64,000 nt of DNA from Bacteroidota bacterium (GCA_026391805.1 JAPLDJ010000016.1:186001-250000); one strand, 5' to 3'. Positions 31,807 through 35,269 are shown, counted from the first letter of the stretch. The notes: generated by a model not told the origin, from the sequence alone. Numbers and translations are program-made.

Positions 31807-32017
31807 TCATAACATATAATTCTTTCCTATTTTTGTTGTTTCAGGTTAAGTTAAGGTTCGGCTACCGTTCAATAACGGACTTTTATGACCACCGCCTGGT
31901 TTGCATTTGTCTTTTAGTTCCCGTACAGATGTCAGCCCGTTTCGGAACCCTAAAGCCGGATTTTTCTCCTTTCAGAGTCCGAACAACGCTCAAAACAGGC
32001 TTCCTAATACGTTATGC
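31807..32017 (+). repeat. attC-like long imperfect palindrome, copy A (TCATAAC...GTTATGC), upstream of the DUF3089 gene
   Basis: Left arm CATAACATATAATTCTTTCCTATTTTTGTTGTTTC is similar to the reverse complement of the right arm, CATAACGTATTAGGAAGCCTGTTTTGAGCGTTGTTC; homologous to 34355-34556. Confidence 0.45.
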
Positions 32018-32081
32018 GCAAGGCATTGAGAAAAACAATAACCATTGAAACAGCATTACTTACCGTTAGTATTTAACCAAC

Positions 32082-33083
32082 ATGAAAAAGAACCTAAATT
32101 GGTATTACTTGTCAATAACCATCGGATTTGTTTTGCTTTTATGCAATGGCTGCGCTAAAGACGGAACATCCCAATACATTACTACATCCACGGATTATTC
32201 GCAATCCATGCATTGGTTGTCCCTACCCCCGACGGTTTACAAAGCGGACGTTTTTTACGTATATCCTACGACTTCGTGGACAAAAGACAATACCGCTGCA
32301 ATGATCTGCGCGATTGACGACTCGCTCATGATGGCCGGAGCAGCCTCGGCCTTTGCACGGCAGGCCACTGCTTTTGACACTGCAGCGAATGTGTATGCCC
32401 CTTACTACCGGCAGGATAATTCTTCACCGGACAACCGGCTAAATGTGATAGCAGGAATACCAACAGCAGATGTAACGGCGGCCTTCGATTATTATATAAA
32501 GAATTTTAACAAAGGCCGTCCCTTCATTTTAGCCGGACATTCACAGGGAGCTAATATTGTGTGCAACCTGTTATCCGGATACCTGAAAGAAAATCCTCAG
32601 GTTTATGCAAGAATGATTGCTGCATACGTCATCGGCGGACCGGTTACCAAGCAGTTTCTCAACGATAATCCGCACCTGAAATTTGCCACCGGCCCCGATG
32701 ACACGGGTGTGATTATTTCATACAATACTGAAGCACCAAATGTTTCCGGGGTGAATCCGGTGCTTTATGGGATGGTGGGCCTTGTGATCAATCCGATCAC
32801 CTGGACAAGAGATGAGACCCTGGCAGATACAACACAAGGCTTAGGGTCACTCTTCCCAAATAAACAAGGCGTATGGGTAAAAATACCACAATATGCCGAT
32901 GCCCGTGTGGATACAACAAAGGGGGTATTGATTTGCGCATCTGCGGATGAAAATAAAATAGCGGTTATAGACTCACTCAGCGGGTTCCCAAAAGGTGTCT
33001 ATCATAGTTTTGATTATCCTTTCTATTATTTCAATCTGCGACAAAATGCCGCGAACAGAATTCAAAAATTCTTAAGTAAATAA
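32082..33083 (+). CDS. DUF3089-family alpha/beta-hydrolase lipoprotein
   Basis: 333 aa; lipobox 'LLLCNGCAK', 'ADVFYVYPTTSW', 'FILAGHSQGANIVCNLL'. Confidence 0.85.
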   Translation: MKKNLNWYYLSITIGFVLLLCNGCAKDGTSQYITTSTDYSQSMHWLSLPPTVYKADVFYVYPTTSWTKDNTAAMICAIDDSLMMAGAASAFARQATAFDTAANVYAPYYRQDNSSPDNRLNVIAGIPTADVTAAFDYYIKNFNKGRPFILAGHSQGANIVCNLLSGYLKENPQVYARMIAAYVIGGPVTKQFLNDNPHLKFATGPDDTGVIISYNTEAPNVSGVNPVLYGMVGLVINPITWTRDETLADTTQGLGSLFPNKQGVWVKIPQYADARVDTTKGVLICASADENKIAVIDSLSGFPKGVYHSFDYPFYYFNLRQNAANRIQKFLSK

Positions 33084-33268
33084 CATTCCATTCTCAACTT
33101 CAATTTCAGGAATCACGGGTAGGAACCGCAGTACAAGCCTGGGAAATTGATCCTGTTACCCATTTCAGATTTCACATTTCAGATTTCAGACTTCGGATTT
33201 GGTGTTTGGTGTTTGGCGTTTGAGACTTTTCATCTGGCACTTGCCACCTGTCATCCATCATTCAACAT

Positions 33269-33510
33269 CCCGGCTAAGCGGCATTTGTCCTGAGCATTCG
33301 GGAATGCTTTGAATCATTCACTCATTTTTTATCCTTTGCGCTCAGGCCGCGCGGGTTATTTTTACTTTTTTTTCTGTCCTGTACTTTTCTTTTGCTTGTC
33401 TCCCGCTGGGCGCAGCTGCGATGTGGCGACGAGGCCCGCGCGGCCTGAGCGCAAAACAGGACACTTATGTGAATCGTTTAAAGCGGCATTACAAATGTCG
33501 CTTAGCCGGG
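33269..33510. repeat. Nested inverted-repeat (MITE-like) element
   Basis: Outer arms CCCGGCTAAGCGGCATTTGT (33269-33288)/ACAAATGTCGCTTAGCCGGG (33491-33510), 19/20; inner arms TTTGCGCTCAGGCCGCGCGGG (33335-33355)/CCCGCGCGGCCTGAGCGCAAA (33435-33455), 21/21. Confidence 0.75.
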
Positions 33511-33658
33511 GACTGATGTCCGATTCCGGACTTTACATTTCACATTTCACATTTCACCTTTCAGACTTCGGACATCGGACTTGGCGTTTGAGACTTGCCA
33601 CTCTCCAGCCCCTCCCCCGACCCCTCCCCTCCCGGGGCGGGGTGAAGAACCGTCACAC
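33510..33658. repeat. About 145-bp direct repeat, copy 1 (left of the MNT gene)
   Basis: GGACTGATGTCCGATTCCGGACTTTACATTTCACATTTCAC...CCCTCCCGGGGCGGGGTGA...CCGTCAC; near-identical to 34166-34308. Confidence 0.85.
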
Positions 33659-33702
33659 GATTCGCGTCACGCGTAAAATAAAAATATCATTATCTTTGTT
33701 CA

Positions 33703-34002
33703 ATGAATGAGGTTGAACAAAATATCCGGTCAATCAGAGATCTGTGTCAGAATCACGGCGTGGATAAGCTTTACCTTTTTGGTTCGATACTGGGTAATAA
33801 TTATAACGAAAAAAGTGATATCGATTTTCTTGTCAGATTTAAGACAATTGAACTACTTAAATATGCCGACAATTATTTTGATTTCCAGTTTTCCCTGGAA
33901 GACTTATTGCACCGGCCTGTTGACTTTCTTGAAGAATCCTCAATAAAAAATCCATACTTTCTTGAGTCGCTGAATGAATCAAAAAAACTTATTTATGGAT
34001 AG
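33703..34002 (+). CDS. MNT-type minimal nucleotidyltransferase
   Basis: 99 aa; 'KLYLFGSILGNNYNEKSDIDFLVRF' (GSx9-10DxD). Confidence 0.88.
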   Translation: MNEVEQNIRSIRDLCQNHGVDKLYLFGSILGNNYNEKSDIDFLVRFKTIELLKYADNYFDFQFSLEDLLHRPVDFLEESSIKNPYFLESLNESKKLIYG

Positions 34003-34076
34003 GGAATTAAAAAGCAGAACGTCCTGCGCGTTTCGCGTAACGAATCACCTTGCATTTTCAAGTGAAAGAATGTGAA
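33994..34076 (+). pseudogene. Possible truncated HEPN partner start (MDRELKSR...)
   Basis: ATG overlapping the MNT stop (TATGGATAGG) starts MDRELK, then runs into repeat-like sequence and stops soon after. Confidence 0.3.
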
Positions 34077-34165
34077 TTACTGAGGTCGAAGGTCGGAAAA
34101 AATAATCTGTGACTAATCTGTGTAAATCCGTGGTGAATAATGAGGTCGGAAGCAGGAGGATGGAG

Positions 34166-34308
34166 GACTGATGTCCGATTCCGGACTTTACATTTCACAT
34201 TTCACATTTCAGACTTCGGACATCGGACTTGGCGTTTGAGACTTGCCACTCTCCAGCCCCTCCCCCAACCCCTCCCCTCCCGGGGCGGGGTGAGAAACCG
34301 TCACGCGT
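34166..34308. repeat. About 145-bp direct repeat, copy 2 (right of the MNT gene)
   Basis: Near-identical to 33510-33658. Confidence 0.85.
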
Positions 34309-34354
34309 TACGAGCCTTCTCCTTAAGGGCTGAAAATAAAATTCCCCCCTTTGT

Positions 34355-34556
34355 TCATAACATATATTTCTTTCCTATATTTGATGTTGCTGTTAAGGAA
34401 GAGTTCGGTTACTGCTTAAAACGGGCTTTTATGACTACCCCATTGTTTTCACTTGTCTTTTCGTTCCAATATGGTAATCATGCCGTTTCGGGGTACTAAG
34501 TCCGGATTTTTAGAGTACGAACAACACTCAAATTAGGCTTATTTACACGGTTAGCG
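34355..34556 (+). repeat. attC-like long imperfect palindrome, copy B (TCATAAC...GTTAGCG)
   Basis: Homologous to copy A with different right-end core; arms CCTATATTTGATGTTG / reverse complement CCTAATTTGAGTGTTG. Confidence 0.45.
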
Positions 34557-34607
34557 ATAATGCTATAAACTTTACACCCAAAGCCTTTGAATCATTAAAA
34601 TGATAAA

Positions 34608-35141
34608 ATGGAAAATACTTTTACAAAAGCGTTTGTGCTTAAAGTGCTTTTTGAAGCTGTTGTCATAGGGCTTTTTGTTTGGGGAATACAATTCTTCTTT
34701 GAAAATAAGTATAAGCCCATAACAGCATCCGAAGTTTTAAAAAGGGAAAACTTCTTGAATGCAAAGAAGAACGCATATTTCGAAGCCATCGATATAGCAA
34801 ATAAAGTAATGGCAAACTTAGATTATGGCAGTATAGATGCTAATACGGGAAATAAGATCGCTTCGGAATTTTTACATAAGCATCCACAAGACCTCAGCAG
34901 TTTTGAATTAGAAATAAACAGTGCATATAGCAAAATGATGATTTTTACCTCAGATACAAACATATTGACTTCATATTTCAGAATTTTTGTTACTCCACCT
35001 ACTGAAAAACATATCCCTATTATTGAAATGAGGAAGTTTATAGTAGCAATTAGAAAAGATTTAGGCAATACAGAAGAGTTGCCTATTGAATATAAAATGC
35101 TATACATAGTAATGCCTTCTCAACAGGACTCTCTACCATAG
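34608..35141 (+). CDS. Hypothetical membrane-anchored protein
   Basis: 177 aa, one N-terminal hydrophobic segment; bordered by GTTAGCG (34550-34556) and CGCTAAC (35180-35186). Confidence 0.65.
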   Translation: MENTFTKAFVLKVLFEAVVIGLFVWGIQFFFENKYKPITASEVLKRENFLNAKKNAYFEAIDIANKVMANLDYGSIDANTGNKIASEFLHKHPQDLSSFELEINSAYSKMMIFTSDTNILTSYFRIFVTPPTEKHIPIIEMRKFIVAIRKDLGNTEELPIEYKMLYIVMPSQQDSLP

Positions 35142-35179
35142 GTTATCATTACAAAAATGACTAAATAGTGACACTGTAC

Positions 35180-35269
35180 CGCTAACAAGCATGTAAAACC
35201 AATGCTGCAAAGGATCTTCTGTGGTTAAGGGTTGTAACGACACCTGGTTTTACAGGCCAAGCGTTAACA
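35180..35269 (+). repeat. attC-like element (CGCTAACAAGC...GCGTTAACA)
   Basis: Imperfect palindrome with 10-bp perfect stem TGTAAAACCA/TGGTTTTACA and outer TAAC/GTTA; 90 bp; follows the 34608-35141 gene. Confidence 0.5.

What the first reader, a model, noticed from the sequence alone, without database searches (positions are those of the whole stretch)
31807..35269. A second integron-like array: two homologous about 205-bp palindromic elements ending at GTTA, then a third attC-like site
Seen: elements 31807-32017 and 34355-34556 are diverged copies. Their similarity stops at GTTATGC and GTTAGCG, after which unrelated genes begin (DUF3089 lipoprotein; 177-aa membrane protein). The 34608-35141 gene is then followed by a 90-bp palindrome whose R''-like end CGCTAAC is the exact reverse complement of the GTTAGCG at its upstream border, the rule expected of an integron cassette. 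The elements also carry TATTTTTG/TATATTTG boxes, so they may be promoter-bearing. Caveats: 202-211 bp is long for attC, some cores deviate from GTTRRRY, and no R'' was found after the DUF3089 gene.
Basis: partly seen in the sequence, partly recalled or inferred. Interest (0 to 1): 0.82.

Follow-up and report, generated by a model that had tools for sequence, protein, structure and literature searches.

The report
Gene cassettes of a patchless-integrase integron

Summary
The third site (35180-35269) is a real attC. A five-site covariation model including it finds eight attC in this genome and attC in 30 of 44 family genomes. The cassette rule (R'' = reverse complement of the upstream R') holds 7/7 from 34550 to 35180 and in 24 of 38 consecutive attC pairs of the family (shuffled mean 2.2).

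The two ~205-bp elements are diverged copies whose right ends are cassette borders, but they are not supported as attC: no covariance match, palindromy no better than other YAAC/GTTR pairs. I read them as promoter plus attI-type insertion sites; this is inference (about 0.5).

The 7.1-kb island is an insertion between two genes adjacent in three relatives.

The driver is probably a tyrosine recombinase on contig C12. In eight relatives its orthologues lie 0.75-1.5 kb before attC, same strand, with an attI between, whose core matches the first cassette 7/7 in the seven loci checked. All 19 orthologues aligned lack the IntI-specific I2 insert (62-63 residues, against 104-105 in IntI, between two landmarks). 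Several carry a HARP-like N-terminal domain. Whole-genome presence of recombinase and attC is not correlated; adjacency is the evidence.

So: an integron variant with an I2-less integrase, unreported in the papers I could search.

The parts
31277..38377 (.). species-specific insertion between a penicillin-binding protein gene (29015-31276) and a saccharopine-dehydrogenase-like gene (38378-39514, minus)
   Evidence: in G326, G202 and G324 the two genes are convergent neighbours with only about 6 to some 80 bp between them
31751..32017 (+). element E1: candidate promoter (TTTG 31802-31805, TATTTTTG 31828-31835), leader, recombination core GTTATGC 32011-32017
   Evidence: homology with E2; cassette-start motif TTATGC[AG]CAAGGC shared with bona fide cassettes; promoter-box-to-core length 189 (counted on into the core) within the 177-271 of recombinase-linked attI
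32082..33083 (+). DUF3089 lipoprotein gene, first gene after the E1 core; no attC of its own found
   Evidence: Pfam PF11288 1.5e-45
33703..34002 (+). nucleotidyltransferase (MNT-like) gene in the same stretch
   Evidence: Pfam PF01909 2.2e-13
34298..34556 (+). element E2: candidate promoter (TTTG 34350-34353, TATATTTG 34376-34383), leader, recombination core GTTAGCG 34550-34556
   Evidence: core is the 7/7 complement of the E3 R''; similarity to linked attI marginal, rank 25 of 709
34608..35141 (+). 177-aa membrane-protein gene, body of the cassette 34551-35263
   Evidence: only 7 other homologues in 5.8 billion proteins; absent from the 395 other class genomes searched; distant homologues in a Nitrospirae MAG and Tenacibaculum
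35180..35269 (+). attC site E3: R'' CGCTAAC, R' GTTAACA
   Evidence: found by pattern; covariance model 57.3 bits, E 3.7e-12 over the genome, training member; covariation of the site family
35421..37991 (+). WG-repeat protein gene after E3; its C-terminus is closely similar to that of a 380-aa gene in array 1
   Evidence: Pfam PF14903, 9 repeats; compare
274..404 (-). attC of array 1 (GCCTAAC...GTTATGC)
   Evidence: 81.6 bits
1132..1171 (-). dispersed attI-type site heading a cassette of array 1 (core GTTAGGC, complement of the attC R'' at 404)
   Evidence: E 2.6e-4 with a model built from recombinase-linked attI; rank 0 of 709
2604..2643 (-). second dispersed attI-type site in array 1 (core GTTAACC)

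Best explanation
The finding is an integrase-less cluster of integron gene cassettes (a CALIN-like island) in a Bacteroidota genome. E3 is a genuine attC; the 177-aa gene plus E3 is one cassette, inserted at the core GTTAGCG that ends E2. E1 and E2 are two copies of an array-head unit (promoter, about 180-bp leader, attI-type core) after each of which a different gene sits. The cassettes belong to an integron family whose integrase is an IntI/Xer-like tyrosine recombinase lacking the IntI I2 insert, transcribed toward attI and the array as in Treponema; in this genome it is on contig C12 and acts, if at all, in trans. Shown by sequence: attC family with covariation, cassette rule, recombinase-attI-attC order in relatives, absence of the I2 insert, island insertion. 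Inferred: that this recombinase recombines these sites; that E1/E2 are attI-type sites; that the promoter is Pc; that the HARP-like N-terminal domain helps in recognising folded DNA.
For: attC: alignment of five sites with 6 pairs changed on both sides, 0/500 shuffles as high; model R1 finds these 5 plus 3 more in the genome and attC in 30 of 44 family genomes. Cassette rule: 24/38 consecutive pairs 7/7, shuffled mean 2.2, maximum 9 in 5000; attI core to first attC 7/7 in seven relatives and in five own cassettes including E2 to E3. Recombinase: orthologues lie 745-1533 bp before the first attC on the same strand in eight loci. I2 absent: Lys-to-HxLR spacing 62-63 in 19/19, 104-105 in three IntI, 70-77 in two Xer; the best PDB match IntI4 aligns in two stretches around the missing region. 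Dispersed attI copies: six rank 0-1 of 709 GTT sites against recombinase-linked attI. E1 border: cassette-start motif, 4 of 5 occurrences in 0.93 Mb at cassette starts. The same layout (site, gene without attC, site, gene, attC) occurs with recognised attI copies on C22 and in array 1. attI-ORF-attI cassettes are known and excised by IntI1 (PMC12901181).
Against: E1 and E2 are not recognised by the attI model (ranks 279 and 25 of 709), and their leaders show no homology to recombinase-linked leaders, although linked leaders of other genera are not homologous to the own one either. Presence of recombinase and attC across the 44 genomes is not associated (19 both, 11 attC only, 9 recombinase only, 5 neither; odds ratio 0.96), probably partly because contigs often break just after the recombinase and R1 misses divergent attC. 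No activity has been measured. In this genome the recombinase contig ends 366 bp after the gene, so its own array is not seen. The spacing between TTTG and TAnnTTTG in E1/E2 is 22, longer than consensus.
Confidence: 0.7

Rival explanations
1. E1 and E2 are unusually long, AT-rich attC sites (R'' TCATAAC, R' GTTATGC/GTTAGCG); the DUF3089 stretch is then an ordinary cassette ending with E2.
For: E1 R' against E2 R'' matches 6/7 (own reading); palindromy beats own dinucleotide shuffles in 295/300 and 298/300; R1-missed candidate attC with other arm sequences exist in G310 and G334.
Against: Palindromy unremarkable among comparable YAAC...GTTR pairs (ranks 44 and 12 of 238); no hit by the attC model; 202-212 bp against 64-134 bp for family attC; the homology runs 56 bp beyond the supposed R''.
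Confidence: 0.22
2. E1 and E2 are just a segmental duplication of intergenic DNA that happens to lie upstream of cassette borders; only the last few bases are functional.
For: Similar low-complexity blocks lie upstream of both, and the region is full of genome-typical repeats; no homologue elsewhere.
Against: The conservation ends at the cassette border in both copies, the promoter-like boxes are kept at 78% overall identity, and the same arrangement with recognised attI copies occurs at two other loci.
Confidence: 0.25
3. The cassettes were laid down by a canonical IntI (present in 4 of 296 order genomes) and the I2-less recombinase beside the arrays is an unrelated neighbour.
For: Canonical IntI exists in the order; whole-genome presence of recombinase and attC is uncorrelated.
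Against: Eight independent loci have recombinase, attI and attC in the same order and orientation; the attI cores obey the cassette rule; the own genome has no IntI over the cut-off, nor have G202, G100 and G287. The other 40 family genomes were not searched for IntI.
Confidence: 0.1

Closest known systems
Integron / CALIN (IntI, attI, attC; IntegronFinder definitions, PMC9024848)
   Same: attC with R''/R' and a covarying stem, cassette rule, attI, tandem arrays, arrays without integrase
   Different: integrase lacks the IntI-specific insert that is normally required to call an integrase IntI; several dispersed attI copies in one genome; Bacteroidetes were reported only with In0 and one complete Salinibacter integron in that survey
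Treponema chromosomal integrons (PMC3607928)
   Same: integrase transcribed toward attI and in the direction of the cassettes
   Different: Treponema integrases are described there as intI genes; here the recombinase has no I2 insert
attI-type gene cassettes, attI-ORF-attI (PMC12901181)
   Same: a gene without its own attC lying between two attI copies
   Different: known ones are class 1 and 2 resistance cassettes; here whole head units with upstream flank are duplicated, and for E1/E2 attI identity is inferred
Integron-like subgroup of tyrosine recombinases (PMC8138268)
   Different: no cassette arrays are described there for members without the insert; here they sit beside arrays and several have a HARP-like N-terminal domain

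Membership tests
integron | attC sites with R''/R' and a paired stem | tested here: met
   E3 and seven other sites; covariation 0/500, genome scan
integron | R'' of a cassette complements its upstream R' | tested here: met
   24/38 7/7, null 2.2; attI to first attC 12/12
integron | attI next to the integrase gene | tested here: met
   site 218-308 bp after the recombinase in nine loci and in G301 about 700 bp after it, core obeying the cassette rule where a first attC is held
integron | integrase of the IntI family with the I2 insert | tested here: not met
   TIGR02249 142 + 100 bits in two pieces, below the cut-off of 265; 62-63 against 104-105 residues
integron | integrase recombines the sites | not testable with these tools
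   needs an assay
integron | integrase gene in the same array (array 2) | tested here: not met
   no recombinase remnant in the window; CALIN-like
attC (for E1/E2) | hairpin between R'' and R' with an L-box stem | tested here: not met
   no R1 hit; ranks 44 and 12 of 238
attI (for E1/E2) | core G^TT at a cassette start | tested here: met
   E2 to E3 7/7; E1 cassette-start motif
attI (for E1/E2) | sequence similar to the attI of this integrase | tested here: inconclusive
   E2 rank 25/709, E1 279/709; linked attI are themselves diverse
attI (for E1/E2) | adjacent cassette promoter | tested here: inconclusive
   TAnnTTTG kept in both; box-to-core length in the linked range; spacing to TTTG is 22

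The most novel reading that the evidence does not exclude
Bacteroidota carry a widespread integron family in which a tyrosine recombinase without the I2 helix, often with a HARP-like N-terminal domain, captures and shuffles cassettes at folded attC sites, so the I2 helix is not the only way to use single-stranded attC; its promoter-bearing attI units have been copied to several places in one chromosome.
Probability: 0.65. Interest if true: 0.88.

Novelty: new variant of a known kind. Interest (0 to 1): 0.76.

Why it matters
The I2 helix is held to be the innovation that turned Xer-like recombinases into integron integrases (PMC7790495). Natural arrays beside an I2-less recombinase would be a living alternative or early state, making that evolutionary question testable. 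They would also explain attC arrays in Bacteroidota that integrase-based searches would score as integrase-less, and point to a large unrecorded cassette pool: at least 8000 database proteins resemble the recombinase (which also counts more distant relatives).

Tried and rejected
Rfam scan of 28-40 kb: nothing above gathering scores. Fold and arm-energy scans for attC around four canonical IntI loci of the order: no array recognised. BLAST of E1/E2 in 296 order and 44 family genomes and of their promoter stretch in viral contigs: no homologue; the short E1 matches were inspected and lie in unrelated genes. 177-aa protein in genome and viral contigs with the single sequence or alignment: two distant hits, one (L075) in what looks like a flavobacterial cassette. 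Island against plasmids: no match. E1/E2 as attI by HMM and pairwise ranking: not recognised. E1/E2 leader homology with linked leaders: none. Genome-level co-occurrence of recombinase and attC: no association. The AlphaFold model of the recombinase had low pTM (0.48), so its PDB fold matches (IntI4 first, XerA next) are only supporting.

Full report
OBSERVATION. The two elements are diverged copies, alignable from about 31751/34298 to the cores GTTATGC (32011-32017) and GTTAGCG (34550-34556); the genome has only these two copies. The site at 35180-35269 follows the 177-aa gene, and its CGCTAAC complements GTTAGCG 7/7. The claimed palindromy of the long elements is weak: better than most of their own shuffles, but not remarkable against other YAAC/GTTR pairs of the same span, and the consensus fold of both copies does not beat column shuffles.

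CONTEXT. In G326, G202 and G324 the penicillin-binding protein gene and the saccharopine-dehydrogenase-like gene are neighbours; here 7.1 kb lies between them. The whole stretch is therefore a species-specific insertion holding E1, a DUF3089 gene, a nucleotidyltransferase gene, E2, the 177-aa gene, E3 and a WG-repeat gene. The 177-aa family is sparse: seven other proteins in 5.8 billion, none in the 395 other genomes of the class that were searched, with distant relatives in a Nitrospirae MAG and in Tenacibaculum. That scatter is typical of mobile cassette genes.

ATTC SITES. Five sites in the genome, E3 included, align with a stem in which six pairs changed on both sides (0/500 shuffles as high; sliding the partner destroys it). 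The model R1 built from them recovers those five with strong scores plus three new sites on C22, C1 and C18; E3 is a training member, but it was also found by a plain pattern search over the genome with two other matches. R1 finds attC in 30 of 44 family genomes, in arrays of up to 10 or more. Consecutive sites obey the cassette rule: 24 of 38 pairs match 7/7, shuffled mean 2.2, maximum 9 in 5000; at least two of the exceptions are one-base register slips, and some hide an attC that R1 missed.

THE RECOMBINASE. The genome has no IntI over the TIGR02249 cut-off; the best candidate (C12:366-1517, minus) scores 142 + 100 bits in two pieces with the middle missing. Its orthologues lie directly before attC arrays: G327 (10 attC), G323 (8), G300 (3), G324 (3), and G301, G306, G312 and G325 (1 each before the contig ends), all on the recombinase's strand, the first attC 745-1533 bp after the gene. 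Between them lies a site ending in GTT[AG] whose core complements the first attC R'' 7/7 in G300, G301, G312, G323, G324, G325 and G327: this is attI. In two further loci, G310 and G334, which R1 missed, a hairpin-like stretch begins with the R'' that the attI core predicts. The order recombinase-attI-cassettes, all in one direction, is that of Treponema (PMC3607928).

NO I2 INSERT. Between the catalytic-lysine region and HxLR the 19 aligned orthologues have 62-63 residues, three IntI of the order 104-105, two Xer 70-77. A profile of the family matches IntI4 best in the PDB, but in two stretches leaving out chain residues 180-242, while XerA aligns in one piece. The other catalytic residues are conserved. 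The I2-less proteins form one group apart from IntI and Xer (96/95), but long branches make its placement unsure. Ten of 22 family members match the Pfam HARP model at their N-terminus, one of the three shown individually over the curated cut-off; HARP domains act on branched DNA in SMARCAL1 (own knowledge), so a role in attC recognition is a hypothesis.

DISPERSED ATTI. In this genome six attI-like sites lie away from the recombinase: two on C22, two in array 1 (window 2604-2643 and 1132-1171, minus), one on C1, one on C12. Scored only against recombinase-linked attI they rank 0-1 among 709 GTT sites. On C22 and in array 1 the layout is: flank-attI-gene without attC-flank-attI-gene-attC. That is the layout of E1-DUF3089-E2-177aa-E3. 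Cassettes ended by an attI instead of an attC are known and excisable by IntI1 (PMC12901181).

WHAT E1 AND E2 ARE. Their right ends are cassette borders: E2 by the 7/7 rule; E1 because the 13-mer TTATGC[AG]CAAGGC after its G occurs five times in 0.93 Mb of held sequence, four of them at cassette starts in three genomes. They are not the attC of this family. They resemble a promoter-leader-attI head in order and length (189/180 bases from box to core, linked range 177-271) but not in sequence; attI regions of other genera are no more similar to the resident one. My reading is an attI-type head unit from a different integron of this kind, duplicated with its flank (about 0.5); a long attC (0.22) or a plain duplication (0.25) remain possible.

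CAUTIONS. Whole-genome presence of recombinase and attC is not associated (odds ratio 0.96), probably because contigs break after the recombinase (own contig: 366 bp left) and R1 misses divergent attC; adjacency carries the argument. Only three other family genomes were searched for canonical IntI. The structure model is of low global confidence. Novelty was checked only in open-access papers: seven literature searches found no I2-less integron system, and one survey reports only In0 and a single Salinibacter integron in Bacteroidetes (PMC9024848).

Noticed in passing
L066 (C12:260459-263542), attC at C12:261956-262045 and 260944-261033: Third cassette cluster in the genome with a Fic-like gene between two attC.
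   Followed up: partly
L082 (C22:51816-54907): Tandem attI-gene-attI-nucleotidyltransferase/HEPN pair-attC; the two attI copies and their flank are 96% identical.
   Followed up: partly
L075:592-722 and 1000-1130 (Tenacibaculum finnmarkense): AT-rich ~130-bp sites with attC-like ends (TTGCAAC/GTTGCAA) around a distant homologue of the 177-aa gene: a possible flavobacterial relative of this cassette system.
   Followed up: no
window 1149-1213, 2630-2694, 2737-2801: Three copies of the 3' end of a methylase-like gene, two of them forming the flank of attI copies; the same flank recurs on C22.
   Followed up: partly
window 35421-37991 and L022:10431-11573: WG-repeat gene after E3 shares a closely similar C-terminal domain with a gene in array 1.
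   Followed up: no
L023-L026 (G272, G189, G204, G007): Four of 296 order genomes carry canonical I2-bearing IntI, one with an internal stop; no array was recognised beside them.
   Followed up: partly
L161, L173 and others: Some orthologues of the recombinase are 550-566-aa open frames with extra N-terminal sequence that looks like repeats of the HARP-like unit.
   Followed up: no
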